Below, one piece after another: positions 37,001 to 53,529 of a stretch of 53,529 bases of DNA. Each line of letters starts with the position of its first letter. Positions within the stretch are counted from its first letter, which is position 1. Under the pieces are notes generated by a model. That model searched no databases and was not told where the DNA came from. It was given only the letters and a program-made list of their open reading frames with translations. The translations under genes were made by a program, and so were the position numbers. Source of the DNA: Chryseobacterium wanjuense. GTDB taxonomy: Bacteria; Bacteroidota; Bacteroidia; Flavobacteriales; Weeksellaceae. The DNA is taken from the NCBI RefSeq assembly GCF_900111495.1, contig NZ_FOIU01000007.1, positions 1-53,529 of the forward strand, written 5' to 3'.

Positions 37001-37141
37001 ATTGGTAACATCCGGAAAGGCTTCAATGGGCATATTTTTGAAGCTTATGAATCCCGAGACCGCCAAAATAGCCACCCAAATAAAGGTAAATGCTTTGTTT
37101 TTTAATGAAAAGGCAATTATATTTTTAATGAATTTATTCAT
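34043..37141 (-). CDS. czcA: Heavy-metal efflux pump, HME-RND family
   Basis: 1032 residues with twelve predicted membrane helices and two large periplasmic loops. The fourth-helix motif VDFGIIIDGAVVMVE carries D396, D402 and E409 in the spacing known from CzcA-type Zn/Co/Cd/Ni pumps; CusA-type copper pumps lack the DFG element. It therefore probably exports divalent cations through the periplasm, together with the adaptor and outer-membrane genes upstream. The order outer-membrane factor, adaptor, pump and the two-component regulator nearby fit one metal-resistance locus. The exact metal is open. Confidence 0.92.
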   Translation of the reverse strand: MNKFIKNIIAFSLKNKAFTFIWVAILAVSGFISFKNMPIEAFPDVTNTQIVIITQWNGRSAEEVERFVTTPIELAMSPVQKKTSVRSTTMFGLSIVKILFDDGVDDTFARNQVNNQLRTVSLPDDVDPEVQPPYGPTGEIFRYTLQSKTKDSRELLTLQNWVIDRALRGVPGVADINVFGGQDKVFELSIDPRALDKYNLTPLQVYDAVTKSNLNVGGDVIEKNGQAYVVRGIGLVKSINDIGNITIQNDSGNPVLVKNVAEVHESSMPRVGQAGLNNQEDTVEGIVVMRKGENPREVLVGVKAKIKELNEKILPKDVKMVTFYDRDNLMDFTTHTVMHNLIEGIVLVTVIVLIFMADWRTTLIVSIIIPLSLLFAFLCLKLAGMSANLLSLGAVDFGIIIDGAVVMVEGLFVMLDHKAHQYGEEKFNKMAKGGWIKQTGTGLGKAIFFSKLIIITSLIPIFSFQKVEGKMFSPLAFTLGFALMGALIFTLTLVPVLSHILLNKNVKEKNNPFVSFWDRIVLKGFNYTFKHKKMSLIVAISFLAVTLFSGKFLGTEFLPQLNEGSLWITAEMPMSSSLKESLKTADLLKKDIMSFPEVTDVLAQTGRSNDGTDPNGFGFVQFAVNLKPKEDWKRKITYEELIEEIDKKLRNYQGITFNYSQPISDNVAEAVAGFKAENGIKIYGDNLETLDRLAEEVLKQIKDIQGVKDAGIIKNIGQPEVSVVLDRDKMAAYGVMPDDAQSVLEMAFGGKTASEMFDGERKFPIRLRYSQEYRKDENDIAALMVPTQDGSKIPLKEISNIVKDNGAAFIYRDDIKRYIGIKFSIRDRDLGSTIADAQKAVSKIELPDGYSVGWTGQFENQQRASKRLAQVVPISILGIFFLLFILFGNMKDSLLVLANVPFALIGGIIALHVTGINFGISAGVGMIALLGICIQNGVILITEFHQNVKNGLSLDDAILQGVKSRTRPVIMTALMASIGLMPAALSTGIGSESQKPLAIVIIGGLITATVLTLLIFPIIFWIFNRTKKSLQI

Positions 37142-37195
37142 GATGGATTTTTTGATGATTTTTAAGATAAAAGAAACAATCGTTAATTCTGACGT

Positions 37196-37267
37196 GTCAT
37201 CCTGAGCGCGAAGCAGTCGAAGGATTTATACATTAAACTTTAAAGGCTTCGAGAACCTCAGCCTGAC
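37196..37267 (+). repeat. REP-like element, copy 1
   Basis: gtcatcctgagc...gtcgaaggattta...aggcttcgagaacctcagcctgac, about 70 bases whose ends (gtcatcctgagc / cctcagcctgac) are loosely inverted. It lies in the gap between pump and adaptor genes. The same unit occurs at 39793-39859, 39940-40004 and 42263-42327. Confidence 0.85.
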
Positions 37268-37336
37268 AAAACCGTATTAACTATTCTGCATAATTGATTT
37301 TAACAATTAAACCGAAGCTTACTATTTAAAATAAAA

Positions 37337-38422
37337 TTAACTATTCAAAGAGCGGTAGATCAATAACTGATTATTCGTGATCACCTCTTCTCCTTCAGAC
37401 AAACCTTCGGAAACGTAAGTGATATCTCCGACTTGTTTCAACACTTTAATTTCTTTTACCTTAACATCCGTTCTGGATTTATAAACCACTACAAAACTTC
37501 TGTTATCATCAAAAATGACGGCTTTGGAAGGAACTGTTAAGGCCATTGCATTCTCAGAGCTTGTTACTTTGATGGTAGCTTTACTGTCCGGAATCAGTAA
37601 TCCGTTCTGGTTATCCAAAACTACCCTTGCCTGCATGGCGTTGGTTTCGGGATCGATGATTTTAAAAATTTTATCAATTTTACCATCAAAAAACTTGTCG
37701 GGATAAGATAATGTGGACACCTGGGCTTTCATTCCAAGGCTGATTTTATCAATATCCGATTCGTTGACATTCATGATGGCCCAAACGTTACTCGTATTGG
37801 CAACATCAAAAATATTATCGCTCCGGTCGCTTCTCAGCTGCATATCCTTATTGATGTTTTTTTGAACGATGTACCCGCTGATTGGAGCTACTACGCTGTA
37901 AATGTTCCCTTTCTTTACATTGTAAACCGTACTCACCGCATTGGCTCTCTGCATTTGGTCCTGCGCTTTTTGAAGTTGACTTTTGGCTTCCAATACCTCT
38001 CTTTCGGTGTTCAGTTTTCCTTCATACATCTCCTTAGCGACACGAAGGTTGTTTTGTGCAACAACCAAATCCGTTTTTGCATCGCTTACATCTTTCTGAA
38101 CTTCCGCCAACTCCGTACTTCTGATGGTCGCCAATACCTGTCCTTTCGTCACATGATCTCCTAATTCCACGTTGACGCTTAACACATTTCCCCCAACCAA
38201 CGGATAAACATCGATATAGCTGTTTTTATCTGCCGAGATTTTCCCGTAAAAATTATAATTGTCTTCTATATATTTTTTCTCAACTTTCGCCAAAGAAATA
38301 GACTGAAGCATTGTATTACTCAGTTCGAAACCTTTTTTTGCCTGTGGTTTTGTCTTTTCCTCTTTTTTTGAACAGGATAAAACGGACAAAGCCACCATTA
38401 CTAAGACTATATATTTTTTCAT
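37337..38422 (-). CDS. Periplasmic adaptor of the metal efflux system (HlyD/CusB type)
   Basis: 361 residues with a lipoprotein signal (MKKYIVLVMVALSVLSC), a barrel-sandwich (lipoyl-like) domain (YPLVGGNVLSVNVELGDHV and VVAPISGYIVQKN), a helical hairpin (about residues 105-170) and C-terminal beta domains. It links the inner-membrane RND pump to the outer-membrane factor. It starts 2 bases after the outer-membrane gene ends. A gap of 195 bases with a REP-like element separates it from the pump gene. Confidence 0.92.
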   Translation of the reverse strand: MKKYIVLVMVALSVLSCSKKEEKTKPQAKKGFELSNTMLQSISLAKVEKKYIEDNYNFYGKISADKNSYIDVYPLVGGNVLSVNVELGDHVTKGQVLATIRSTELAEVQKDVSDAKTDLVVAQNNLRVAKEMYEGKLNTEREVLEAKSQLQKAQDQMQRANAVSTVYNVKKGNIYSVVAPISGYIVQKNINKDMQLRSDRSDNIFDVANTSNVWAIMNVNESDIDKISLGMKAQVSTLSYPDKFFDGKIDKIFKIIDPETNAMQARVVLDNQNGLLIPDSKATIKVTSSENAMALTVPSKAVIFDDNRSFVVVYKSRTDVKVKEIKVLKQVGDITYVSEGLSEGEEVITNNQLLIYRSLNS

Positions 38423-38424
38423 GT

Positions 38425-39666
38425 TTAATAGAAGATTTTCGTTTGTACTAGTTGATTCAATTGTTCCGCCGACTGCATGATTTCGTTTTTCATGTCATAA
38501 ATCTGAAGAGCGGTCTGCCGGTAGCTTTCCATGAAATCTGTAAATTCGATGAGACTTACGTTTCCGTTTCTGAAATTTTTCAGCATTCCGTTGTAGACCA
38601 GATCCATATTATTAAGATCTGTTAATGTGATTCCCGTTAACTGGTCGTACTGGTTTTTCCAGGTTTTGTAAGCGGCCTGAACTTTAGTTTCAAGATTTAA
38701 TTTCTGGAAATCTGCATTTTTCTGGTTTTGCTGAATCGCGAAATTAGCTTTATCCACATTTCCCCTATTCGATTTCCATAATGGCAGCGGAATTCCGACC
38801 ATCAGATTCACTTCATTTTTAAAAGTTCCCCCGTTTTGGTCCCACCCTGCTCCGACATTCAGATCAGGAACATTTAATGATTTTTGCCATTGTGCGTACA
38901 GCTTGCTGTTGTCAATTAATTTTAAATTATATTGATAGTCTGCATTATTTTCCAATGCTTTTCTCTGCAATTCCGTTTCGTCACCAAAAGGCTGAGCAGC
39001 AAGAATATTTTTCGCATCAGCGTCTGAAAGCTGCGGCTCGATGTCGTCTGTAATTCCTGTAAGAATTTTTAAATTTTGTTCAAATTCAATAATATTTTTA
39101 TTAATTCCGAGCTTGTCGTTATTCAATTGGATCACGATACTTTGAAGTCTCACTTCATCTTTCAGGGAAACATTTCCTTTCGCAGCCTGTACTTTATAAG
39201 CCGCCAAAAGATCGTTCATGTAGCCCAATTGTTTTTCGGTATTTTCGAGTTTTAATTTTTCGTAATAAAGATTGTAGTAGGTAGTATGGAGCTGAGCTTT
39301 CAAATCCACCAAAAGTTGAGAAAACTGAAGCTGAGCCAGTTCTTTACTGGATTTTGCAAAGGCAATTTCGTTTTTCTTTTTGCCTCCCATGTAGATCAAT
39401 TGGGTGATTTGCGCACCTTTTGCATGGCCGATATCAAAAAATTTTCGGTCTTCAGGATTGTACGCGTTGATTTGCCCGCTCAGTTGCGGAAGTTCCCAGA
39501 TTTTAGCCTGCAAAATATCTGCATCAGCCATGTTGATGTTGTACTGTTCGGCAAGCAGTTGTAAATTATTCTTCTGGAAAGCTTCTTCGCAATCCAAAAG
39601 CGTCATTTGCTGCTGTGCTGTCATGAATGAGGAAATGACAATAAACAGCCCTGCAATTTTGTTCAT
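38425..39666 (-). CDS. TolC-like outer-membrane efflux channel
   Basis: 413 residues with a signal peptide (MNKIAGLFIVISSFMTA) and two TolC-type repeats of long coiled-coil helices (for example LQSIVIQLNNDKLGINKNII) with short barrel strands. It is shorter than TolC, as is usual for Bacteroidota metal-efflux partners. It is the first gene of the efflux operon. Confidence 0.9.
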   Translation of the reverse strand: MNKIAGLFIVISSFMTAQQQMTLLDCEEAFQKNNLQLLAEQYNINMADADILQAKIWELPQLSGQINAYNPEDRKFFDIGHAKGAQITQLIYMGGKKKNEIAFAKSSKELAQLQFSQLLVDLKAQLHTTYYNLYYEKLKLENTEKQLGYMNDLLAAYKVQAAKGNVSLKDEVRLQSIVIQLNNDKLGINKNIIEFEQNLKILTGITDDIEPQLSDADAKNILAAQPFGDETELQRKALENNADYQYNLKLIDNSKLYAQWQKSLNVPDLNVGAGWDQNGGTFKNEVNLMVGIPLPLWKSNRGNVDKANFAIQQNQKNADFQKLNLETKVQAAYKTWKNQYDQLTGITLTDLNNMDLVYNGMLKNFRNGNVSLIEFTDFMESYRQTALQIYDMKNEIMQSAEQLNQLVQTKIFY

Positions 39667-39792
39667 TTTATTGATTTTTATGATACAAAGTTGCCTTTCT
39701 GCTATTAAAACGACCTTAAATGAGGCTTAAAAAAAAATTAAATTTGGGGTTATGGATTTGTAAGTCATTGATTGACAAATGGAATACAATTT

Positions 39793-39859
39793 GTCAGGCT
39801 GAGGCTCTCGAAGCCTTATTCATATATAAATCCTTCGACTGCTGCGCGCTCAGGATGAC
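39793..39859 (-). repeat. REP-like element, copy 2
   Basis: Reverse orientation relative to copy 1: gtcaggctgagg...aagcc...tccttcgactgctgcgcgctcaggatgac. Confidence 0.85.
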
Positions 39860-39939
39860 AGTCCTAATACAAAACTGTTTGAATTTTATGTTTAAAATTA
39901 CTTTGTAGAGTTCAATAATGGAATGATGAAATAACGGTT

Positions 39940-40004
39940 GTCAGGCTGAGGTTCTCGAAGCCTTATTCATATATAAATCCTTCGACTGATACGCTCCGGA
40001 TGAC
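39940..40004 (-). repeat. REP-like element, copy 3
   Basis: Same orientation as copy 2 and 81 bases behind it; slightly degenerate at the right end (gatacgctccggatgac). Confidence 0.85.
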
Positions 40005-40029
40005 AGCCTGAATACTAAGTGTTTTAAAA

Positions 40030-41394
40030 TTATTTATTAAAAATCACGCTGAATTGATTCACATTTTCATTGGGAGATAAATAGGTAATTTTAGCGCTGT
40101 GATATTCCAGAATTCTTTTGACAATTCGAAGACCAAGTCCGGAACCGGAAATATTTTGAGAATTATTGCCACGTTTAAAGGCTTCAAATAATTTTGTCTG
40201 TTCGTCCTGCGGAATTGTTTCTCCGCGAGAGATCACATCCACCGTAAGGTTTTCATTGGTTTCGGTGATCAGAACATCCACTTCGGTATCTTGGGAATAG
40301 ACCGCTGCATTTTTAAACAAATTAATAAAAACAATATCCAATAAAGATTGAATTCCTTTAATCGTCAATAAAGCATTTTCGGAAGTCTCTTCTGAAATCA
40401 GGAAATCCATTTTAAGATTGGGATAGCTTTTTTCAACCGCTTCAAAAGATTCGAAAATCACTTCATCAATTCTCACCTCTTCATAAATACTCTGGATGTT
40501 TTCTTTATCAAATTTTGTAAGAAGCAGCAACGAATTCGTTAAATCTGATAATTGATAAACATCCTGCTGAATTTGTTTTAAAGAAGATAATGTTTCCGGA
40601 GAATGTTGTTCGAGCTTAATTAAATTTTCCAGCTGAAAAGCCATCCTGGTAATCGGAGTCCTGATTTCGTGGGATGCACTTGCCGTAAAATCCTTCTGCG
40701 ACTGAAAGACATCATCCAGCCTGCCGATCATGGTATTGAAAGATCTTGCCAGTACATTAATCTCGTCATTAGAATCCCTTACCGGAACTTTCGTGGTCAA
40801 TTTATGCGCCGTGACTTCCGAAATCTCCTGATTCAGGTCTTCTAAAGGTTTCAGGAACTGCCCCATAAAATAATAACTGAAAAAACCGATGAGAAGCGTA
40901 CTCATGACATAAGCCGTGATCAAAAGGTATTTCAGATAGGATAGTTTTGATTTTCCGTTGCTATCGAGAGCACTGGTAAGAATATAATAATTTTCACCAT
41001 TGATGGTTCGGAGGGCGGCGTAAATTTCGGGAACCGTCTTTTCGGAATAAATTACTTTTTTTTCGTCAAGTTCTTTTAATAGGCCATCATCCCAGGTTAC
41101 ATTTCTGTCTTTGATGGTACTGTAAATTAATTCCTTTTTATTATTAAAGATTAAAATCGTTTCATTTAAAAGAATATTATCCGAATTTTCATTAAAAAAA
41201 ACGGGAGCTTCCTCTTCGAAGTCTTTTGATTTGGCAATAAAATGGGAAGTAAATTCGAGCCTTTGTCTGAATCTTTCTTTGAATTCATCTCGTCTGAAGT
41301 CATTAAAGGACATATAAATCACCGCCATTACAATACCAAAAAGCAATGAGAAGGCAATACTGAGATTGAGCGCGATCTTCCTTTTTAAAGACAT
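40030..41394 (-). CDS. Sensor histidine kinase of the metal-efflux locus
   Basis: 454 residues: a membrane helix (about 9-29), a periplasmic sensor region (about 30-150), a second helix (about 155-178), HAMP (about 175-230), HisKA with H242 (SASHEIRTPITR), and HATPase with N box NLFKNAAVYS and G box SGSGLGLRIVKRIL. It probably senses metal in the periplasm and phosphorylates the response regulator encoded 3 bases upstream. The order regulator-sensor next to RND genes is typical of CusRS/CzcRS systems. Confidence 0.92.
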   Translation of the reverse strand: MSLKRKIALNLSIAFSLLFGIVMAVIYMSFNDFRRDEFKERFRQRLEFTSHFIAKSKDFEEEAPVFFNENSDNILLNETILIFNNKKELIYSTIKDRNVTWDDGLLKELDEKKVIYSEKTVPEIYAALRTINGENYYILTSALDSNGKSKLSYLKYLLITAYVMSTLLIGFFSYYFMGQFLKPLEDLNQEISEVTAHKLTTKVPVRDSNDEINVLARSFNTMIGRLDDVFQSQKDFTASASHEIRTPITRMAFQLENLIKLEQHSPETLSSLKQIQQDVYQLSDLTNSLLLLTKFDKENIQSIYEEVRIDEVIFESFEAVEKSYPNLKMDFLISEETSENALLTIKGIQSLLDIVFINLFKNAAVYSQDTEVDVLITETNENLTVDVISRGETIPQDEQTKLFEAFKRGNNSQNISGSGLGLRIVKRILEYHSAKITYLSPNENVNQFSVIFNK

Positions 41395-41397
41395 CTG

Positions 41398-42078
41398 TTA
41401 TAATGGACTTAAATAATACCCGAAACCGGAACGTGTATGAATAAGTTTAATTTTAAAATCTTTATCAATCTTTTTTCTTAAAAAATTAATATAAACCTCA
41501 ACCGTATTCGTATTGGTGTTGAAATTGTGCTCCCAGACATGTTCCGTGATCTGCTGTTTCGACACTGTTCTTCCCTGAGCTTCCGCCAGATAAACCAGTA
41601 ATTGGAATTCTTTCAGGGTCAGCGTGATTTCGTTTCCGCCTCGATATACTTTTTGTTCGGTTTTATTGATAATTAAATCATCAATCCTGATGATATCCTG
41701 GTCATTGTTTTCCGACGGAGCTTTTCTTCTCAACAAAGAATTGATGCGTAACAACAGTTCCTCAAACTGAAATGGCTTCACCAGATAATCATCAGCCAAT
41801 CTTGTAAAAGCATCCTTTTTATCCGACAGATCTCCGTACGCCGAAATAATGATAATCGGGGTATTTTTATCGAAAGAACGAATGGTCTGGCAAACATCCA
41901 GCCCGTTTATCTTCGGAACATTGATGTCGAGCAGATACATATTGTACGTATTATTTTTTATCTGGCGAAGAAATGTTTCTCCGTCGTAAATTTTATCACA
42001 CGTAAAATTATTTGACTCTAAAAACTTACAAAGTTCCGCCGAAAGAATAAGGTCATCTTCCAATAAAAGAATATTCAT
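41398..42078 (-). CDS. OmpR-family response regulator of the metal-efflux locus
   Basis: 226 residues. The receiver domain has the acidic pair at D8-D9, the phosphorylation site D51 (MYLLDINVPKINGLD) and K101 (LVKPFQ). The C-terminal winged HTH (about residues 125-226, EFQLLVYLAEAQGRTVSKQQI) belongs to the OmpR group. It is probably the activator of the efflux operon downstream. Confidence 0.94.
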   Translation of the reverse strand: MNILLLEDDLILSAELCKFLESNNFTCDKIYDGETFLRQIKNNTYNMYLLDINVPKINGLDVCQTIRSFDKNTPIIIISAYGDLSDKKDAFTRLADDYLVKPFQFEELLLRINSLLRRKAPSENNDQDIIRIDDLIINKTEQKVYRGGNEITLTLKEFQLLVYLAEAQGRTVSKQQITEHVWEHNFNTNTNTVEVYINFLRKKIDKDFKIKLIHTRSGFGYYLSPL

Positions 42079-45642: not shown

Positions 45643-46248
45643 TTAATCATAGTTTATATCATCAAATACCATTGCATAAACCTCCTTTACTAAAGTTATT
45701 ATAGTAAGAAGATAGTTATAGAGAAAAATAAAGGATAATGTTTGTAAAAATAATAATACAATAGATTTTACTTTACTGTAGTCAATATCTCCCGTTTCAA
45801 TAAATTCTTTGACTTCCTTAACAACTTGTAAACCTTGCAAATTTGCTTTCATTAAAAATATATATAGTAATAAAAAAACTATTGATATAATTGCAATAGC
45901 AACCGAAAACAAAATAAGAGTTGTAATTTGTTCTGTAAAATCTTTATATCTTTTGAGATAAGATTGGGCTTCATCACTTTGATTACGGCTCATCTGATTT
46001 TTTCTCTTGGAATAATTTTCAGTTACAACAAAAATTACAGAAAAAAGCAGACCGGAAAATATGCTAATTGCACTTATAATATTTGAAATGATGTCATTGT
46101 CAATAGTAACACTAAATAGTAAAAAGATAATTGAAAGCATTATAGGAAAAAAAAGATGCCAAAATATTGTATAGAATATCTTTGGACTTACTCGAATTTC
46201 AGAGAAGCCATCTTTTAATAATTCTATTAAATTAAATTTTGAAAACAT
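45643..46248 (-). CDS. Four-helix membrane protein of the defence cluster
   Basis: 201 residues with four predicted membrane helices (about residues 24-49, 54-78, 104-133, 162-188) and a short charged cytoplasmic loop (SKRKNQMSRNQSDEAQS). It starts on the base after the stop of the preceding gene (46249), so both are translated together. I recognise no family. In defence clusters, small multi-helix proteins often act as membrane-damaging effectors or as sensors, and its place behind the Hachiman pair makes such a role plausible. A Kiwa-like pair was considered but not supported. Confidence 0.6.
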   Translation of the reverse strand: MFSKFNLIELLKDGFSEIRVSPKIFYTIFWHLFFPIMLSIIFLLFSVTIDNDIISNIISAISIFSGLLFSVIFVVTENYSKRKNQMSRNQSDEAQSYLKRYKDFTEQITTLILFSVAIAIISIVFLLLYIFLMKANLQGLQVVKEVKEFIETGDIDYSKVKSIVLLFLQTLSFIFLYNYLLTIITLVKEVYAMVFDDINYD

Positions 46249-47223
46249 TTAATTTTTATATCCTATTTCCCTTTTTATTTTATTCAGAATACCGTCTGTG
46301 AATTTTTTAATTTTCACATAATCATAATGATGTGTTTCATTTGATTTTATTTCATCGGGTAAGAATATTGTTGGTGTAATATCCAACGTCTTATTTATAC
46401 CTACATTTGCTAAATGCCCGTCTTCATCCTTATAATAAGCTTTCAGGTCGTATCCGTTTTGTTCTGATATATCAAGATCTTCTAAGTTAGCACCAATTAA
46501 TTTATTTATACCTTGACCTTTCAATTTGCTCCAAAAATCTGTAACGTTGTGTTTAAAACCACTTACTGTAACGGTGATTTTGAGATTTTTTTCATCTGCG
46601 AAAATTGGGTTAATTATTTTTCTTTTACCTCTTGAAATATTATCTTTAATAATTTTCATCTCGTAGACGTGGCTATTTTTGAGATATTGATCTTTTATAT
46701 CTTTTGGAGTGAATGGTGAATAAACTAAAGTAAAACCGTAACCAGTAATAAATTTACGTAGTACTATCTTAAACAATTCCGAAACCGTATAATCCGAATA
46801 ACTTTGTATCATTAAAATTCCGGAATTATGATCAAAAGGAGTCCAAAGTTTTACAAAAAACGGGACTGATGCAATTTGATCCAATCCTATCTTTCCTTTT
46901 TCTTCAATAGCATTATTTAAATCATAGATGGTTTCTAAGTTACCGATGCTTCCGCCAAAAATTTCCCCATCTATAATATTTTGAGTACTTCTGGGCGTGA
47001 AATTATTGTCATTTGTTGTAGAAATACTTTTAGTCCCTTTACCGTCAGTTTTAAATTTACCATCAAACAAGCCTCTGTAGTCAGAAATAAACTGTAAATA
47101 TGCTTCTTCCTTCTCTTCTCCTATACTCTTAAACAGATCCTTAAAATTTAAAAATTCTTTAGATCTCGAATTTCGTTTCTTTATTGCAATTTTGAAAATT
47201 TCTAATTTTAAATTTTGTGCCAT
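46249..47223 (-). CDS. Uncharacterised protein behind the Hachiman genes
   Basis: 324 residues, no signal peptide, no membrane helix. The N-terminal part is helical and basic (LEIFKIAIKKRNSRSKEFLN); the middle has a segment IASVPFFVKLWTPFDHNSGILM, and the C-terminal half is a mix of strands and Lys-rich helices. I recognise no domain. It lies 47 bases after hamB and is fused in translation with the membrane protein that follows. Together they may form a two-gene module with a cytosolic sensor and a membrane partner, or extend the Hachiman system. Both are inference. Confidence 0.6.
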   Translation of the reverse strand: MAQNLKLEIFKIAIKKRNSRSKEFLNFKDLFKSIGEEKEEAYLQFISDYRGLFDGKFKTDGKGTKSISTTNDNNFTPRSTQNIIDGEIFGGSIGNLETIYDLNNAIEEKGKIGLDQIASVPFFVKLWTPFDHNSGILMIQSYSDYTVSELFKIVLRKFITGYGFTLVYSPFTPKDIKDQYLKNSHVYEMKIIKDNISRGKRKIINPIFADEKNLKITVTVSGFKHNVTDFWSKLKGQGINKLIGANLEDLDISEQNGYDLKAYYKDEDGHLANVGINKTLDITPTIFLPDEIKSNETHHYDYVKIKKFTDGILNKIKREIGYKN

Positions 47224-47270
47224 ATATAGTTTTCCTTGGTTAAGTCTTCTTGTGGAATATTTTAAATTTG

Positions 47271-49286
47271 TTATTCAAAATAAACTCTTAAATCGCTCAT
47301 ATTTTCATTTTGAAAAATAATTTTCCTAATATCGTGTATAGAAAATTTATTTGGTAAGTTATCTGCAATTCTTTCTAGAAAAGGATTAGCTCTCTGATAT
47401 GGAATTCCATATTCAAAAAGTTTATTCATAATAACAAGTGTTTCGTGAGTAGGATTATCTATACCTATAAATTTGGAATAAAACTGAGCTTTTTTCCTCT
47501 TAGCCTCAACAATGACTTCAGTAGGAATTAAATTTTTATTCGTATGTTTTTTGTACAAATCATCTACATCAATTATAAAATTAATTAACGGTATTATCTT
47601 GAATGGTAAAAAGCTGTAAATCATATCAATTAAAATTGATATAATTTGAGATTTGAATTTCTGTTTGTTTTTTGAATGTAATTCATTAACCATTGAACCA
47701 AATGTATTAAATCGGGAACTTAAAATTGTATTAAGACTATTTATATCTGTTCCGCCGATAAGTTTCCCTATTATACCGAGAAGAAGAACATTTTTCGTAT
47801 TGGCTATGTACTCAAGTAAAATTGTAAATTGATTAACTGTAAAACCGTGATTGTTTAAGAGCGAAATAATTTCCTTTGAAGGAACATTAGAATAACTCGA
47901 ATTTTCTAAATGTTTTTGTAATTTATCTTCGTGCGAAGTTTTACCTTCAGTATTTTTTTCTTTATCAAAATTTTCATCTCTATTTATTTCAATAATATCT
48001 GATTTATTTTCTAATAGGAATTCAATATTAATATTTTCATAAGATACGTTTGCATTTTCAAATTGTTTTTGATGCTTCTCAAAATAATATATATTTCCAA
48101 CCTTATGCTCTCCTAATCTGCCCGCACGTCCAATTAAATTTTTATATTTGACTAAATTTTTATCTCCTAAAATATCTCTCGAACTGTATATATAGATATT
48201 TTTTGTAGGCGTATTAACCCCTTCAATGACAGAATTAGTAGCTAATACATTTTTTAGTTGGTTTGATTTGAAAAGATCAATTACTTTTTTCTGAATAAAT
48301 TTAGGCATAGGACCATAATGTATACCAATACCAGATTTTAGAGCTTGAATAGGTAACCATTCCGAATGAAAATCTTCTTGTACTCTTTGTATCCAACTAT
48401 CATTTAATTCAATCGAATTTTTGATTGATTTTAATTTTGAAAGATAAATTCTTTCTAATTCTTTGGGAGAATTAAAATATACAAGGTTTGTTATTTCGTT
48501 TTTTGATATTTCTTGATATATTGTTTGATCTAATTTTTTTATACTGTTAAAGCTCTTTGCTACAGGAGCATAATCAGATTTTAGAACTTGAAAAGTAAAA
48601 TTTTCTAAACCTGTAATAGAATTAACTAATGGCATTAACAATATAATCTTTTCTGAGTTTTCTATTGTATCAATAAAAGAACGGTTTAAAATAACCTCTC
48701 TACTTCCTTTAATTGAATCTGTCAGTTTATAAGCCTCATCAATTACAAATAGATCAATTTTTTCTTTATAGAATCCCTTCAAATTATAATATTTTTCCTG
48801 AGTCCCGATGAAAATGCTCTTTTCAGAAATGACTTCTAAGCTTTTTACAGAATCAAAAATAATATAATCTAAAGCTGTAAAAAGTAATTTAAAATCATCC
48901 AACAATTCATCAGCCAAAGAATTTGTAGGAACAATAAATACAACTTTATTTGGTTGATTATTAAAAATAAACTCCTTAATCAACATTGTTTTACCAAAGC
49001 TGGTGGGAGCTGAAACAATGCACCGCCGGTTTTCAAGAATTCCATTATAGATTTTAAGCTGTTCAGAAGTAAATGAAATCTTCGAATTATGGCTCAGCTG
49101 GTTTGTTTCCTGAATAAATTCAAGTTGTTTGGAAAAAAAAGAATTGTCCAAATTTTCTTTATAGTATGGTGACAAATCATAGAGAAATAGATCTTCTAAT
49201 TCTACTTTTATTTTTTTTTCATCAAGAATTTTTATAACTTCTTCACGATTATTCTGATTCAGTATTGTTTCTTCAGAGTTTATCAC
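47271..49286 (-). CDS. hamB: Superfamily 2 helicase, HamB-like (Hachiman defence)
   Basis: 671 residues. Helicase motifs: Walker A APTSFGKT (93-100), DEAY box in VIDEAYKL (183-186), motif V ATNSVIEGVNTPT (349-361), motif VI NLIGRAGRLG (383-392). The C-terminal ~230 residues are helical and variable. The gene overlaps the HamA-like gene by 4 bases, the order typical of Hachiman. In that system HamB binds and unwinds DNA, and HamA acts as a nuclease that degrades DNA when infection is sensed. The assignment rests on motif set, gene pairing and lengths. Confidence 0.8.
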   Translation of the reverse strand: MINSEETILNQNNREEVIKILDEKKIKVELEDLFLYDLSPYYKENLDNSFFSKQLEFIQETNQLSHNSKISFTSEQLKIYNGILENRRCIVSAPTSFGKTMLIKEFIFNNQPNKVVFIVPTNSLADELLDDFKLLFTALDYIIFDSVKSLEVISEKSIFIGTQEKYYNLKGFYKEKIDLFVIDEAYKLTDSIKGSREVILNRSFIDTIENSEKIILLMPLVNSITGLENFTFQVLKSDYAPVAKSFNSIKKLDQTIYQEISKNEITNLVYFNSPKELERIYLSKLKSIKNSIELNDSWIQRVQEDFHSEWLPIQALKSGIGIHYGPMPKFIQKKVIDLFKSNQLKNVLATNSVIEGVNTPTKNIYIYSSRDILGDKNLVKYKNLIGRAGRLGEHKVGNIYYFEKHQKQFENANVSYENINIEFLLENKSDIIEINRDENFDKEKNTEGKTSHEDKLQKHLENSSYSNVPSKEIISLLNNHGFTVNQFTILLEYIANTKNVLLLGIIGKLIGGTDINSLNTILSSRFNTFGSMVNELHSKNKQKFKSQIISILIDMIYSFLPFKIIPLINFIIDVDDLYKKHTNKNLIPTEVIVEAKRKKAQFYSKFIGIDNPTHETLVIMNKLFEYGIPYQRANPFLERIADNLPNKFSIHDIRKIIFQNENMSDLRVYFE

Positions 49287-50116
49287 GATATTATTTCTTT
49301 AATTATTAAATCTAATGCTTTTCGTTGTGCTTTAAAGATCAATTCATTTTTTGACTCTATTGGTAGATGATATAAATGTATTTTATAATGAGTTGGAAAA
49401 TTGGAAATAGCAACTTTATCAATCAGATTATAAGACGTATCATACTTTTTTATATCAGTTTCAGATGTATGCAGAACAAATCCAGATAATGTAAGAGGCA
49501 TCTTTTTTATATCCTCAGATGTCTTTTCTGATATTTCTCCTGTAATACCCTTTAATATTATGACACTATCAGTATTTAAGATATTTTTTATATAATCTTC
49601 TAATTTACTTTTAAATGAAACATCTTTTATAATTTTACCTACACCTCCATATAATAAACTATAAAACTTTGCTTCACCTAAAACCAAACTACTATTCGAA
49701 AACATACAAACATCTGCTCCTGTAGAGATTTTAGTCAGATTTTCATTTACTGAGATAACACCTGTTACTAAGTCTTTATCTATATAATCTATATTTAATC
49801 TTGCCAATAATGCTTCAGCAAAAAAAGAATAATATGTTTCATTCTTATTGTCTGAAATAAACTTTCTGATTTCATCATCATCCACATCTTTCTCCCTGTT
49901 TTCAAACGAAGTTTCTATAAACCTTCGTAATTGCCTAAGTCTATCTTTTCGAGATAATGGTCTATCTTTTTGAAACAAATAATTAAGATTAGTTTCTTCA
50001 TACATTATATCAAGAATATAGGAATCTAGATCTTCGAATGTCAAAGAATGTTCGTAAATAGAAAAATTATATTTTCCACAACTACTTTTTTTCTTTTCCG
50101 CAATACTAAAACTCAT
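49283..50116 (-). CDS. hamA: DUF1837 protein, HamA-like (Hachiman defence)
   Basis: 277 residues. The segment SFFAEALLARLNIDYI ... TGADVCMFSNSSLVLGEAKF fits DUF1837, with a PD-(D/E)xK-type set of acidic residues: E101, D135 and E148-x-K150. It is therefore expected to be the nuclease half of the Hachiman pair. All three positions look intact. It is the first gene of a four-gene run on the minus strand. No clear promoter box was found in the AT-rich gap upstream. Confidence 0.8.
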   Translation of the reverse strand: MSFSIAEKKKSSCGKYNFSIYEHSLTFEDLDSYILDIMYEETNLNYLFQKDRPLSRKDRLRQLRRFIETSFENREKDVDDDEIRKFISDNKNETYYSFFAEALLARLNIDYIDKDLVTGVISVNENLTKISTGADVCMFSNSSLVLGEAKFYSLLYGGVGKIIKDVSFKSKLEDYIKNILNTDSVIILKGITGEISEKTSEDIKKMPLTLSGFVLHTSETDIKKYDTSYNLIDKVAISNFPTHYKIHLYHLPIESKNELIFKAQRKALDLIIKEIIS

Positions 50117-50550
50117 AAATCTATTTAATCAATTTTTCAGTAGACAAACGCAATCAAAGCAAATTTTGTCATTGGTTAGTCATTTTTTTAAGAAGTTATC
50201 AATAATATCTTCATTTTTTTAAAGCTTGAAAAATACTAAAAATAAAGGAAAAGAAAATACGGAAAACCATAAAACATAAATAATAAAAACAAGTAATTCA
50301 AAATTCCAATTACTTCTTTGAAATGAAAATCATTAGATACATTTCTATAAAGCTCTAAAATTCAAATATTTAAATAATATTTTATTCAAATACACAGTAA
50401 TAAATGTAAAGTTTAAGCCAACTTAAAATATATTATTTACTTTAACTAGGAAGTTTTATGGATATAGATAAGCCTACTAAATCCATCAAATGATAAGTTA
50501 TCATCAAACTTGGTAATAATATAATACCTGCATAAACTATTATTCCTCAC
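50117..50550. other. AT-rich gap between the Hachiman genes and the XRE gene
   Basis: About 430 bases, very AT-rich, without a credible gene or repeat. It must contain the hamA promoter; I see no good TAnnTTTG box. Confidence 0.45.
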
Positions 50551-50583
50551 AAAAAAATCCTAACTTTCGTCAGGATTTTTTAC
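50551..50583 (-). terminator. Terminator after the XRE gene
   Basis: Minus-strand stem aatcctgac / gttaggatt with a GAAA loop and a run of T. It overlaps the last codons of the gene. Confidence 0.8.
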
Positions 50584-50851
50584 TTTTAATTTCTTTAATA
50601 TCGTATTTCTTATCTGGGATCGGCTCATTAGGAAGAAAATCTTTTATGGAGCATCCTAATGCTATTGCAATTAGATTTAGATGGATTAAATTATATTTTG
50701 CTTTTTTAGATGGTGCTTCTATCTGTGATATAAATCCAATATTCTTCCCAATAGAAAGAGAAAGTTCCTCTTGGGTAATATTCTTTGATTCTCGTATTTC
50801 TTTAACACGTTTTATAACATATCTTTCTATTTCATCTAATGATTCATTCAT
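50570..50851 (-). CDS. Small XRE-family HTH regulator
   Basis: 93 residues. The Cro/C1-type HTH covers residues about 12-75 (IRESKNITQEELSLSIGKNIGFISQIE), with a basic tail (DIKEIKSKKS). It is divergent from the RNA-sigma-Cas12f locus. A perfect 18-bp palindrome sits 34-51 bases upstream of its start codon, between the two transcription units. A repressor acting on its own gene and on the RNA promoter is the simplest reading. Confidence 0.85.
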   Translation of the reverse strand: MNESLDEIERYVIKRVKEIRESKNITQEELSLSIGKNIGFISQIEAPSKKAKYNLIHLNLIAIALGCSIKDFLPNEPIPDKKYDIKEIKSKKS

Positions 50852-50884
50852 AAATCAAAGTGAATGAAAAACATCAAAAAATAT

Positions 50885-50902
50885 TATGTACTATAGTACA
50901 TA
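50885..50902. promoter_or_regulatory. 18-bp perfect palindrome, operator candidate
   Basis: TATGTACTATAGTACATA, a perfect palindrome in the divergent region between the XRE gene and the structured RNA. It lies 21 bases before the -33 box of the RNA promoter. The size and symmetry suit an XRE dimer. Confidence 0.65.
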
Positions 50903-50922
50903 TTTTGTAAAATATTTTTATA

Positions 50923-50954
50923 TTTGTAAAATAAGTTATTGAAATGTAACTTTG
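50923..50954 (+). promoter_or_regulatory. Promoter of the structured RNA and sigma-Cas12f genes
   Basis: TTTG-N20-TAACTTTG, a full match to the Bacteroidota housekeeping promoter. It predicts a transcript start near 50960, about 270 bases before the sigma start codon. Confidence 0.75.
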
Positions 50955-50959
50955 CGATA

Positions 50960-51215
50960 CTTCAAAGAAATATAGAAGCTATTGCTTAGAATCTCGAACT
51001 GAAAACTGGTAATTTTTAATATGCGAGAGGATAAGTAAAGTAGCTCACGACCTAGGCGTGAGCTCACTTATCTGCATATAAGGTATACCAGTGCCCCAGT
51101 TCGGATATGTTGAGTTTCACGCCATTTATTTGGAGGCAAGATGTAGTGAGATAGTGAAGAAAATGGTACAGATAACTCATTCGGGTATCTAAGCAGTTCT
51201 TTTAGCAATAATTAA
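50960..51215 (+). ncRNA. Structured RNA upstream of the sigma-dCas12f operon, guide-RNA scaffold candidate
   Basis: A single long arm is built from five nested helices: 50995-51001 with 51097-51103, 51005-51011 with 51086-51092, 51020-51024 with 51074-51078, 51030-51036 with 51066-51072, and 51042-51049 with 51057-51064. A second part has helices 51122-51127 with 51161-51166 and 51170-51174 with 51186-51190. No open frame fits. Its size and complexity resemble Cas12f tracrRNA/guide scaffolds. A promoter drives it directly, and a sigma gene and dCas12f gene follow. Where a guide would start is not clear. The alternative is a cis-acting leader that controls the sigma gene. Confidence 0.6.
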
Positions 51216-51232
51216 GCTGAAAAATACTGCTT
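51191..51232 (+). promoter_or_regulatory. Hairpin touching the sigma start codon
   Basis: AAGCAGT (51191-51197) and ACTGCTT (51226-51232) are perfectly complementary, and the stem ends on the base before the ATG at 51233. Parts of the loop can pair instead with the 5' region: 51204-51210 (AGCAATA) with 50980-50986 (TATTGCT). Two exclusive folds near a start codon suggest translational control or a processing site for the upstream RNA. Confidence 0.45.
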
Positions 51233-52048
51233 ATGAAGACAACAAACTCACAACCCAAAAAATTGACTGATTTTCAGCTATATGTACAGCTGAAAAAAGG
51301 TAATCCAGCCTCATTAGAACATATTCATTTAAGGTACAAAAGACTTCTCTTCTGGATCGGAAAACAAATGCTTGACGATGATTTTGTCGTGGAAACACTG
51401 GTGCAGGATACATTCCTTAAACTCTGGTTACACCGTGATTCCATTGAAACTCCAAATCATATTCTTGGCTTTTTGCGGTTTGTTTTGAAAAGAGATTGTA
51501 TAACGTATTTCAACACTCCCAAAAATAAATTCGCACGATTAACGGCATCACTTGAAAATTTTGAGAACTATCAGGATTATCTTATAGGTTTTGATCCCCA
51601 GAATGATAAAGAGAATCTCCTCAATCAGGAATCTGAACAAAAGAAATTTGATGAAGTTAAAAAGGTTGTAAACGTACTCGATCCCAAAAGAAAACACCTT
51701 ATTGAACTTTGTCTTGAATATGGTTTTCAATACAAACCAATCGCAGAAGCAATGGGAAGTAGTGTGACAAGCATCAGCAATGAGGTGAGCAGAGCTATAA
51801 ATGATCTTCGGAAAATTCTTAATAGAAGTTCTCTAGAACTTCCAACGGAAAAAGCTTCCGGCAACAAAGAGCAAACTGAAAAACTCAGTAGTCAGCAAAT
51901 CGACATTATAAATAGAAGATTTGAACAGAAATCTTCATTTGCAGTCATTGCTCGAGAACTCAAACTTTCTGAAAAAGAAGTCCATCAGGAGTTTCTTTGT
52001 GCTTATCAATATTTACAGAATCGAAATAACTCTGAAATAACTACCTGA
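51233..52048 (+). CDS. ECF-like sigma factor paired with a nuclease-dead Cas12f
   Basis: 271 residues. Region 2 covers about 10-95 (LEHIHLRYKRLLFWIGKQML, then VVETLVQDTFLKLWLHRD), a linker follows, and region 4 covers about 140-195 (LDPKRKHLIELCLEYGFQYK, IAEAMGSSVTSISNEVSRAI). A C-terminal extension of some 75 residues, unusual for ECF sigmas, holds another helix-turn-helix-like segment (about 218-262, FAVIARELKLSEKEVHQEF). No anti-sigma gene is nearby. One base separates its stop from the Cas12f-like start. It probably recruits RNA polymerase where the Cas12f-RNA complex binds. Confidence 0.85.
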   Translation: MKTTNSQPKKLTDFQLYVQLKKGNPASLEHIHLRYKRLLFWIGKQMLDDDFVVETLVQDTFLKLWLHRDSIETPNHILGFLRFVLKRDCITYFNTPKNKFARLTASLENFENYQDYLIGFDPQNDKENLLNQESEQKKFDEVKKVVNVLDPKRKHLIELCLEYGFQYKPIAEAMGSSVTSISNEVSRAINDLRKILNRSSLELPTEKASGNKEQTEKLSSQQIDIINRRFEQKSSFAVIARELKLSEKEVHQEFLCAYQYLQNRNNSEITT

Positions 52049-52049
52049 T

Positions 52050-53144
52050 ATGGAAGAATCAACAATTACACTCACACGAAAAATTCAGTTATTGATCGAT
52101 GTTCCATCCGATCAAAAAAATGAAATGTGGGAAAAACTTTATCGGTATCAGAACCGTTGTTTCCGAGCGGCAAACTTAATTTCTTCCCATTTATATATTC
52201 AAGAAATGATCAAGGATTTCTTTTACCTCACCGAAGAAATACAATACAAGTTAGTTGATGAAAAAAAAGATCAGATGGGAATGTTTAATCGTTCGAAAAC
52301 TGGCACTACAGCACGAATGGTGTTTGATCGTTTCAAAGGGGAAATTCCGACAGATATTCTGGGAAGCCTTAACAATACAATTCAATCAACTTTCTCTAAA
52401 AACAAAGCCGATTATTGGCAGGGAGCAAAATCACTTAGAAATTATAAAAGAGACATTCCAATCCCACTTCCGGTTAAATGCATCAGCAAAATGAAATATG
52501 ATCCTGATAAGAAAGCCTTTTGCTTCAATATGTTTGCGATTCCTGTCAAAACATACTTAGGAAAAGATTATACTGATAAGCGAGCGATAATGGAACGCCT
52601 GCTAAAAGGAGACATAAAGCTATGCACCTCACAGATCCAACTGAAAGACAGGAAAATATTCTGGCTCGCAGTTTTTGAATTTGAAAAGGAAGAGCATCTT
52701 TTAAACCCCGAAATTATTGCTGAAGCTTACCTATCTCTGGAACATCCAATAGTTGCAAAAGCAAACAATACGCGAATTAACATCGGCTCAAAGGAGGAGT
52801 TTTTGTATCGCAGGCTCGCAATTCAGGCAAGTCAAAAAAGGATTCAGGAGGGTATCGCCTATTCCCGTTCAGGAAATGGAGTAAAACGTAAACAGAAAGC
52901 ATTGTACAAAACAGAAAATCTTGAAAGCAAATATGTAAGTCATAGGCTTCACCTATACAGCCGAAAACTTATCGATTTCTGTATCAAACAACAGGCAGGC
53001 ACACTCGTTCTTAAAAATCAGGAGGACAAAATTGGGATTGCAAAAGAACAGGAGTTTGTAATTCGCAACTGGAGTTATTATGAATTGCAGACGAAAATAA
53101 AATATAAAGCAGAAAAAGCCGGTATCGAATTGATCATCGGATAG
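52050..53144 (+). CDS. Nuclease-dead Cas12f/TnpB-like RNA-guided DNA-binding protein
   Basis: 364 residues. The N-terminal half is a helical/wedge region typical of Cas12f (FRAANLISSHLYIQEMI; GTTARMVFDRFK; ALNNTIQ-like). The RuvC fold is recognisable by its order: strand before RuvC-I (KIFWLAVFEF), the Q-helix (RRLAIQASQKRIQE), YVSHRLHLYSRKLIDFCIKQQ and WSYYELQTKIKYKAEKAGIEL. The RuvC-I Asp is replaced (AYLSLEHP, S229) and the RuvC-II Glu is replaced (LVLKNQED, K322). The protein ends before the zinc finger and the RuvC-III Asp. Cleavage is thus excluded, binding is not. No transposase or CRISPR array is present. Confidence 0.85.
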   Translation: MEESTITLTRKIQLLIDVPSDQKNEMWEKLYRYQNRCFRAANLISSHLYIQEMIKDFFYLTEEIQYKLVDEKKDQMGMFNRSKTGTTARMVFDRFKGEIPTDILGSLNNTIQSTFSKNKADYWQGAKSLRNYKRDIPIPLPVKCISKMKYDPDKKAFCFNMFAIPVKTYLGKDYTDKRAIMERLLKGDIKLCTSQIQLKDRKIFWLAVFEFEKEEHLLNPEIIAEAYLSLEHPIVAKANNTRINIGSKEEFLYRRLAIQASQKRIQEGIAYSRSGNGVKRKQKALYKTENLESKYVSHRLHLYSRKLIDFCIKQQAGTLVLKNQEDKIGIAKEQEFVIRNWSYYELQTKIKYKAEKAGIELIIG

Positions 53145-53150
53145 AAATAA

Positions 53151-53250
53151 AATAACGAGGGTGCTTGTACACCCGTAGGGTGAGGTCTTGAACACTCACT
53201 AAATACTTAACTGTATATACAACGGCGTGGGTTCTTTTTCTACCTCAAGA
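53151..53250 (+). ncRNA. Second guide-RNA candidate downstream of the dCas12f-like gene
   Basis: Starting 6 bases after the stop codon are two small hairpins: 53159-53163 with 53170-53174 (gggtg/caccc) and 53180-53184 with 53195-53199 (gtgag/ctcac). The text is more GC-rich than the surroundings and ends in a T-rich stretch (gttctttttc, 53231-53240). In TnpB and some Cas12f-like loci the guide RNA scaffold overlaps the 3' end of the gene, and the guide follows such hairpins. If so, the guide would lie near 53200-53225. No sequence proof; the upstream RNA is the competing candidate. Confidence 0.4.
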
Positions 53251-53434
53251 TAGCATAGGAACATAGAAATATCTAACAATTATAAAGAAATTACTAACTT
53301 CCATTAAAGAGAAGATTTTAACTATCAAGAAGTAAAAATTTTCATAATATTTTTTTATTTAAATTAGTCAATACTTATAACTTAAAAAAAAATTATTAAA
53401 ATTAAAACTCTATTCTTCTGTCATTCGTTTTAAA
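53251..53434. other. AT-rich stretch before the right repeat
   Basis: 184 bases without a gene. The right terminal repeat cuts the locus here, so a possible target gene of the RNA-guided sigma system may have been separated from it. Confidence 0.45.
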
Positions 53435-53529
53435 TGTAATAGCCACGACTTTATCTGACAGTTAGGGGTTAAAAATAATTGTCAGTTATCCAATATTGTC
53501 CTTACTTCCAAAAGTAAGGATTTTTTGTT
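53435..53529. mobile_element. Insertion-sequence-like terminal repeat, right copy
   Basis: Exact reverse complement of 1-95. The hairpin ccttactt / aagtaagg followed by attttttg points out of the window, like a terminator at the end of an element's gene. No target duplication can be checked because only the inner side is visible. Confidence 0.65.

What the first reader, a model, noticed from the sequence alone, without database searches (positions are those of the whole stretch)
50960..53144. RNA-guided sigma factor locus: structured RNA, ECF-like sigma and nuclease-dead Cas12f in one operon
Seen: a promoter, a highly structured RNA, a sigma factor with regions 2 and 4, and one base later a Cas12f/TnpB-like protein whose RuvC-I Asp (S229) and RuvC-II Glu (K322) are replaced and which ends before the zinc finger and RuvC-III. 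Known: catalytically dead Cas12f homologues paired with extracytoplasmic-type sigma factors have recently been recognised in Bacteroidota as RNA-guided transcription activators. Inference: this locus uses the RNA to place RNA polymerase at a chosen promoter, in a Chryseobacterium-like host and with an extra XRE regulator in front. The sigma C-terminal extension (residues 200-271) may be the docking part for Cas12f.
Basis: partly seen in the sequence, partly recalled or inferred. Interest (0 to 1): 0.95.

Follow-up and report, generated by a model that had tools for sequence, protein, structure and literature searches.

The report
RNA-guided sigma factor targeting leader RNAs
This Chryseobacterium-like locus encodes a sigma factor and a Cas12f relative without its nuclease residues, both close relatives of a structurally solved pair, and its likely guide RNA, found behind the Cas12f gene, shares its core sequence with a widespread family of structured leader RNAs; it is therefore predicted to switch on leader-controlled genes, probably its own among them, with one all-purpose guide.

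Summary
Partly confirmed: a new member of a known kind, with unexpected target logic. The sigma (51233-52048) and Cas12f-like (52050-53144) proteins match the RpoE and "Nuclease-deactivated Cas12f" of PDB 9n9q/9n9c. The likely guide RNA lies behind dCas12f (scaffold 53157-53223, guide from 53224) and occurs in exactly the 9 of 40 genus genomes with dCas12f. The upstream RNA (50975-51123) is a covarying leader family without Rfam match, found in 35 of 40 genus genomes, 26 of them without dCas12f, ahead of SusC-SusD operons, peptide genes and this operon. The two meet: the guide core GGCGTGGG (56 of 82 guides) equals the leader's switch arm, which can pair with an upstream arm or a U-tailed tail. 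Some other guides match other hairpin elements. I infer that dCas12f-sigma loads RNA polymerase inside leaders, its own included; escape from attenuation is a bold, untested reading. Matches are short (11-15 of 21 bases) and not enriched genome-wide.

The parts
50570..50851 (-). divergent XRE-like helix-turn-helix gene (93 aa)
   Evidence: PF01381 E 2.4e-6, above cut-off. 74 of 95 leader copies have a divergent ORF of at least 55 aa starting within 420 bases upstream; of 10 drawn at random, 7 reach a curated HTH cut-off, 2 are weak, 1 has no hit
50919..50954 (+). two Bacteroidota-type -7 boxes, TATATTTG and TAACTTTG
   Evidence: read from sequence; the TA and TTTG of the first are invariant in 36 aligned upstream regions, the second is kept in most; consensus recalled
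50975..51123 (+). structured leader RNA, one of six copies in this genome
   Evidence: covariance model R1 built from 16 dCas12f-linked copies; own genome 6 hits; covariation; no Rfam hit at E up to 1
51043..51049 (+). leader switch: 5' arm f5 GCTCACG
   Evidence: pairs with f3; 7 of 7 pairs in 89 of 95 leaders at the best of 18 placements; apical helix 98.6% of cells paired in A4
51055..51062 (+). leader switch arm f3 GGCGTGAG = predicted autoregulatory target of the guide (7 of 8 bases; 75 of 95 leaders read GGCGTGGG)
51116..51123 (+). leader tail TTCACGCC, complementary to f3, followed by ATTTATTTGG (terminator-like, weaker here than in most copies)
   Evidence: f3:tail 99.2% of cells paired in A3; all 8 pairs in 81 of 95 leaders, 0 of 2000 shuffles as good; 6 or more T in the next 10 bases in 89 of 95
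51233..52048 (+). ECF-type sigma factor (271 aa) with C-terminal extension
   Evidence: PDB 9n9q chain C RpoE E 4e-80, aligned residues 13-264; PF08281, PF04542
52050..53144 (+). Cas12f relative lacking nuclease residues (dCas12f, 364 aa; Y227 at RuvC-I Asp, K322 at RuvC-II Glu)
   Evidence: PDB 9n9c E 9e-160
53157..53223 (+). likely guide-RNA scaffold, three hairpins, ends ATACAAC
   Evidence: 75 distinct sequences; 37-sequence alignment 98.5% of cells paired, A-U to G-C both-side changes in 13 sequences at one pair; only in dCas12f genomes, 9 of 40
53224..53243 (+). predicted guide, core GGCGTGGG (53224-53231), then T-rich; 3' end assumed
   Evidence: core in 56 of 82 guides; matches leader arm f3

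Best explanation
The locus encodes a sigma factor and a Cas12f relative that lacks the nuclease residues, and a conserved RNA just behind the Cas12f gene, its likely guide RNA, is predicted to direct the pair with RNA polymerase to the switch arm of leader-RNA genes, probably including the leader of its own operon. Shown by sequence: homology of both proteins to the 9n9q partners, the missing catalytic residues, the scaffold, the widely shared guide core GGCGTGGG, the same 8-mer in the leader family, and the leader's two mutually exclusive pairings (f3 with f5, f3 with a mostly U-tailed tail). Inferred: that the RNA is loaded into dCas12f, that the match is read as DNA, and that transcription starts downstream of the match (distance of about 46 bp recalled, not tested). 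Because the core is a strongly conserved part of a leader found across the order, one fixed guide would serve several operons (SusC-SusD importers, peptide/GLPGLI genes, TlpA) and the locus itself, and would still work after transfer to another host.
For: Proteins. Guide RNA: conserved block with an abrupt edge after the guide core, covarying scaffold, tandem copies with other guides in L032, L041, L053, L056, L058, L176, L177, L179; present in exactly the 9 of 40 genus genomes with dCas12f, none of 31 without. Guide-leader link: 45 of 80 guides (2 of 82 had no upstream DNA held) match at least 9 of their first 11 bases upstream of their own sigma gene, 40 of these 45 at 975-1005 bases before dCas12f; 27 of 80 at p up to 0.01 against 200 shuffles each. 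18 of 65 loci have no leader hit, yet 14 of those 18 keep a GGCGTGGG guide, which points to targets elsewhere in the genome; L063 and L065 of these are cut or decayed. In another family, L175's guide matches its own leader in 17 of 20 bases and L178's second guide in 15 of 20. A different upstream hairpin (L053, L177) goes with different guides (AAAGCCTT(T)CCC, 9-11 of 11 for four of six guides). L041's second guide GGGGCGGTTTTC has one exact match outside its guide RNA in its genome, in a third structured leader with a divergent ORF that reads XRE-like (not searched in Pfam) and a U-tailed complementary arm. All 23 dCas12f genomes among 395 of the order also hold the leader, against 75 of 372 others.
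Against: Matches are short: 11-15 of 21 bases at five own-genome leaders, and the own-operon leader has a mismatch in the core (GGCGTGAG); the sixth leader reads GGCGTGTT. Genome-wide the guide has no more matches than its reversed control (36 v 48 at 16 bases; 73 v 103 at 11 bases), and three of six exact 11-mers are neither guide RNA nor leader. The core is about as common in leaders of genomes without dCas12f (49 of 65) as with it (26 of 30), so it is not maintained by targeting (the site was picked as the best GGCGTGGG match, which inflates both). Inside the genus, leader and dCas12f are not associated (9/9 v 26/31, p 0.57), and the order-wide figure ignores kinship. No clear shared TAM: a G precedes the pairing stretch in the cases I looked at, but the motif itself begins GG. 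35 of 80 guides fall short of 9 of 11, among them L058's four, L178's first, L176's second, both of L179, two of three in L053 and two each in L032 and L041; L056's best matches are not in the switch arm. L052, L054 and L055 share only CCTTCCC with a hairpin seen by eye, and they and L056 combine this leader with CCTTCCC-type guides, so guide and leader types do not always go together. L041's AGAGCGCCTTTC, and GGGGCGGTTTTC in L032's genome, gave no leader-like target.
Confidence: 0.6

Rival explanations
1. The guide acts on RNA rather than DNA: GGCGUGGG in the guide RNA pairs with the leader's tail CCACGCC (or arm f5) and tips the leader switch in trans, with dCas12f as RNA carrier.
For: The guide is complementary to the tail as well as identical to f3, and the tail is a covarying part of the switch; no clear TAM at the DNA sites; short complementarity.
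Against: It gives no role to a dedicated sigma factor that sits one base from dCas12f; the relatives are present together in 9n9q, recalled to act on DNA.
Confidence: 0.15
2. dCas12f sits on leader DNA as a road-block repressor, as TldR proteins do, and the sigma factor serves another purpose.
For: Nuclease-dead TnpB-like proteins repress promoters (TldR; passages of PMC13418256); the match lies downstream of the leader's own promoter boxes, where a road-block would work.
Against: The sigma gene is one base away and homologous to the RpoE found with dCas12f in 9n9q; TldR systems have no partner sigma (recalled).
Confidence: 0.1
3. The conserved GGCGTGGG-YTY-T-run is not a guide chosen by its target but the 3' half of the guide RNA's own terminator, pairing with the scaffold's CACCCG.
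For: The predicted fold of 53157-53240 pairs CACCCGU with ACGGCGUGGG; most Weeksellaceae guides run into T tracts.
Against: That fold is not better than shuffles (z -0.28); relatives with CCTTCCC or non-T-run guides (L175, L053, L177) keep the scaffold, and two of L041's guides keep the T tract but not the core; it does not explain the 9-11 base identity to the leader.
Confidence: 0.1
4. One reading: the upstream structured RNA is the guide RNA.
For: It is structured and directly upstream of the operon.
Against: Six copies in this genome and copies in 26 of 31 dCas12f-less genus genomes; no hit in 18 of 65 dCas12f loci, some of them cut short.
Confidence: 0.04

Closest known systems
dCas12f-sigmaE RNA-guided transcription system (PDB 9n9c, 9n9m, 9n9o, 9n9q; literature and species Flagellimonas taeanensis recalled, no such paper found in the held library)
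   Same: Both proteins homologous nearly end to end; RuvC residues lost; length within one residue; sigma extension shared.
   Different: Here one guide core is shared across genera and equals the switch arm of a leader-RNA family. I could not compare with the guides, TAM or targets of the solved system, so this may be known there.
TldR, TnpB-like nuclease-dead RNA-guided repressors (passages of PMC13418256 seen)
   Same: RuvC-inactive, short natural guide aimed at a regulatory region.
   Different: Partner sigma factor; closest to the Cas12f of the 9n9 entries; not compared with TldR sequences.
Active Cas12f/TnpB nucleases (9nzr, 7wju, 8dzj)
   Same: Sequence similarity over residues 85-361 or 105-362.
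   Different: No catalytic residues, no zinc finger and no RuvC-III.
Attenuator leaders / riboswitches in general
   Same: Two exclusive pairings, one ending in a U-rich tract.
   Different: No match to any of 4227 Rfam families above chance; ligand, if any, unknown; termination not measured.

Membership tests
dCas12f-sigmaE RNA-guided transcription system | Cas12f homologue related to the solved nuclease-deactivated Cas12f | tested here: met
   9n9c E 9e-160, residues 2-364 of 364
dCas12f-sigmaE RNA-guided transcription system | RuvC catalytic residues lost | tested here: met
   Y227 and K322 against D and E of 9nzr; protein ends before RuvC-III; no D at column 227 in 16 aligned sequences
dCas12f-sigmaE RNA-guided transcription system | adjacent ECF sigma related to the RpoE of 9n9q | tested here: met
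   9n9q_C E 4e-80; one base apart
dCas12f-sigmaE RNA-guided transcription system | own guide RNA | tested here: inconclusive
   covarying scaffold plus variable guide, only in dCas12f genomes; binding not testable, and not compared with the solved guide RNA
dCas12f-sigmaE RNA-guided transcription system | guide matches a genomic site upstream of an activated gene | tested here: inconclusive
   matches in leaders upstream of genes, short and without genome-wide excess
dCas12f-sigmaE RNA-guided transcription system | transcription starts at a fixed distance from the guide match | not testable with these tools
   needs 5'-end RNA data
CRISPR-Cas type V-F | CRISPR array beside the effector | tested here: not met
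   no array-like direct repeats in 49000-53529, the only stretch searched; guide-RNA tandem copies in some relatives
Active Cas12f nuclease | RuvC D-E-D triad | tested here: not met
Known RNA families (Rfam 15) for the upstream leader | match to a curated family | tested here: not met
   0 hits at E up to 1 in 46000-53529; one hit, E 0.074 and below gathering, outside the leader, in 7 leader loci searched to E 0.1

The most novel reading that the evidence does not exclude
RNA-guided bypass of attenuators: a portable dCas12f-sigma element carries one all-purpose guide that reads the switch arm shared by a multi-copy family of terminator leaders, and starts RNA polymerase between that arm and the terminator's second half. 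The new transcript would lack the first half of the terminator, so it cannot terminate, and SusCD importers, peptide operons and the element itself are switched on together regardless of the leader's own signal.
Probability: 0.3. Interest if true: 0.92.

Novelty: new variant of a known kind. Interest (0 to 1): 0.74.

Why it matters
It would show what natural dCas12f-sigma systems are for in a large group of bacteria: a guide chosen for a conserved regulatory RNA element rather than for one gene, giving a many-operon regulon and self-control from a single guide. It links RNA-guided transcription to a covarying leader-RNA family that gave no Rfam match and sits in front of nutrient-import operons among others, and it makes precise, testable predictions about 5' ends in named leaders.

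Tried and rejected
Upstream RNA as guide RNA: rejected. Target search by the 16-base or 11-base guide alone: no excess over the reversed control; the leader link came from reading the contexts. Pseudoknot TTCTC/GAGAA in the leader: no covariation beyond shuffles in A3, although L099 seemed to fit; dropped. Leader as a known Rfam family: no hit. Guide-driven selection on leaders: core about equally common with and without dCas12f, rejected. Extra guides: TGAGCGGTTTTC was not searched genome-wide; AGAGCGCCTTTC has no exact hit outside its own guide RNA in G424 and none in G425; GGGGCGGTTTTC one leader-like hit in G424, none in G425. Literature: the paper behind 9n9c/9n9q was not found in the held library (listings and starts of abstracts only); one search for a published leader motif listed nothing fitting among the 15 shown of 117. 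Structure prediction was not run because a solved relative is close. Rows dropped: the 7 weakest of 102 leader hits were not fetched, so one search covers 95; 2 of 82 guides had no upstream DNA; my pattern found no guide RNA in L004, L019 and L057 of 71 loci (L019 does show one with a GGCGTGGG guide).
Full report
1. Window 51233-52048 encodes a 271-aa sigma factor with Pfam regions 2 and 4, and 52050-53144, one base after its stop, a 364-aa Cas12f/TnpB-like protein. Against the PDB sequences the second protein's best match is 9n9c 'Nuclease-deactivated Cas12f' (E 9e-160 over residues 2-364) and the first's is the RpoE chain of 9n9q (E 4e-80, residues 13-264), an entry that holds both. Aligned with the Cas12f nuclease 9nzr, the RuvC-I Asp is Y227 and the RuvC-II Glu is K322; among 16 aligned sequences the first column is S, Y, F or T. 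The protein ends before zinc finger and RuvC-III, as 9n9c (365 aa) does; most of the 120 relatives listed are 364 aa, some 381. Where the 120 listed carry a source's name, those seen read hypothetical protein or transposase; 788 proteins were found at E up to 1e-10 among 2129 candidates. So the operon belongs to the dCas12f-sigmaE kind, whose literature (RNA-guided transcription initiation) I recall but could not find in the held library.

2. The likely guide RNA is downstream. Comparing 65 related loci showed a block right after dCas12f, 76-97% identical in the Chryseobacterium-type loci, which stops abruptly. It has three hairpins, ends in ATACAAC and is followed by a variable stretch. I collected 82 such elements in 68 of 71 loci examined; 37 aligned scaffolds keep 98.5% of pairs, with A-U to G-C replacement on both sides in 13 sequences at one pair; helix 2 never varies. 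Eight loci carry two to four copies with different guides. In 40 genus genomes the element is in exactly the 9 with dCas12f. In the window it is 53157-53223 with the guide from 53224: GGCGTGGGTTCTTTTT. The core GGCGTGGG heads 56 of 82 guides.

3. The upstream RNA is a separate family. A covariance model built from 16 dCas12f-linked copies of the upstream RNA finds 6 copies in this genome, and copies in 35 of 40 genus genomes and 98 of 395 genomes of the order. It lies upstream of the sigma gene in 47 of 65 dCas12f loci (45 strong and 2 weak hits), in a few of them (L052, L054, L055) further away. Across 96 aligned copies 29 of 31 pairs have both-side changes, 525 such cells against 139 in shuffles (the alignment was fitted to the model, which favours it). 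It gave no Rfam hit. Copies lie upstream of SusC-SusD operons (L171 tested by Pfam; L173 and L174 by the same gene order), a TlpA-like gene and Porph_ging (GLPGLI, name recalled) genes, a 174-aa family without Pfam match and the sigma-dCas12f operon. A divergent ORF is found in 74 of 95; 7 of 10 sampled reach a curated HTH cut-off.

4. The leader looks like a switch. Its apical arm f3 (GGCGTGGG in 75 of 95, site taken as the best match) can pair with f5 (7 of 7 pairs in 89 of 95 at the best placement) or with a tail that ends 66-77 bases after the f3 start. The tail pairing is complete in 81 of 95 and no shuffle of 2000 reaches the observed mean; full replacements exist, such as GGTGCGGG with TCCGCACC. 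The tail is followed by 6 or more T in 10 bases in 89 of 95. This is the layout of an antiterminator/terminator pair; termination was not measured. A proposed pseudoknot was not supported.

5. Guide and switch arm coincide. In the loci's own upstream regions, 45 of 80 guides match at least 9 of 11 bases, 40 of them at one place, the f3 arm or its equivalent. In another family L175's 20-base guide matches its leader in 17 of 20 and L178's second in 15 of 20, while L176's match in 10 and 13 of 20. L053 and L177, with a different upstream hairpin, carry AAAGCCTTCCC-like guides. L041's second guide has one exact match outside its own guide RNA in its genome, inside a third structured leader (z -2.6) with a divergent ORF that reads XRE-like, a promoter box and a U-tailed complementary arm. 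14 of 18 loci without a leader hit keep the GGCGTGGG guide, so targets elsewhere are likely. In this genome the candidate targets are the leaders at C1:1523634, 2150123, 2325139 and 2584839 (core 8 of 8) and the own leader at 51055 (7 of 8).

6. Weak points. Complementarity beyond about 11 bases is poor (11-15 of 21). The guide has no genome-wide excess of matches. The core is about as common in leaders of genomes without dCas12f, so if the link is real the guide has adopted a sequence that the leader keeps for its own reasons. A shared TAM beyond a possible G is not visible. 35 of 80 guides fall short of 9 of 11, and L052, L054, L055 and L056 combine this leader with CCTTCCC-type guides. AGAGCGCCTTTC found no target. 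All 23 dCas12f genomes in the order sample have the leader (23/23 v 75/372; p 1e-15 ignoring kinship), but within the genus there is no association (p 0.57).

7. Mechanism. Most likely: guide-loaded dCas12f binds f3 DNA and its sigma brings RNA polymerase, so that leader-controlled operons, this one included, are transcribed. On the recalled start distance, new transcripts would begin between f3 and the tail and lack half of the terminator. That attenuator bypass is the boldest reading and is untested. Rivals are RNA-level action on the leader, a road-block, and a terminator origin of the guide core.

Noticed in passing
window 47271-50116 (-): Hachiman-like defence pair beside the locus: HamB-type helicase (E 6.8e-81) and a weak HamA-like gene (E 2.4e-4).
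   Followed up: partly
L167, L168, L169 and others, downstream of leaders: A 174-190 aa protein family (MKKNRTDFQSRL...) follows many leader copies; the one tested (L167) has no Pfam match.
   Followed up: partly
leader loci L127-L160, 100-250 bases after the leader tail: A second conserved block (about GATACAATGGGGTGTACAATCCATTGCGGC) follows many non-dCas12f leaders; I do not see it in the window.
   Followed up: no
L045, L038, L042, L043: Decayed copies: stops in the dCas12f homologue of L045, missing or weak leaders in the others; some genomes hold three or four dCas12f loci, suggesting turnover and mobility.
   Followed up: no
L256 (G011:C22:504407): A guide-RNA copy on another contig than that genome's dCas12f hit, guide GGCGTGGCTCTTTTT.
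   Followed up: no
window 34043-42078 (-): Genes that read like an RND-type efflux pump, fusion protein, TolC-like protein and two-component regulator (from the ORF list; not searched).
   Followed up: no
L052, L054, L055 upstream of sigma: A further GC-rich, hairpin-rich block ending in a CCTTCCC hairpin lies between the leader and sigma; its GAATTAGCCA motif recurs in L053 and L177.
   Followed up: partly
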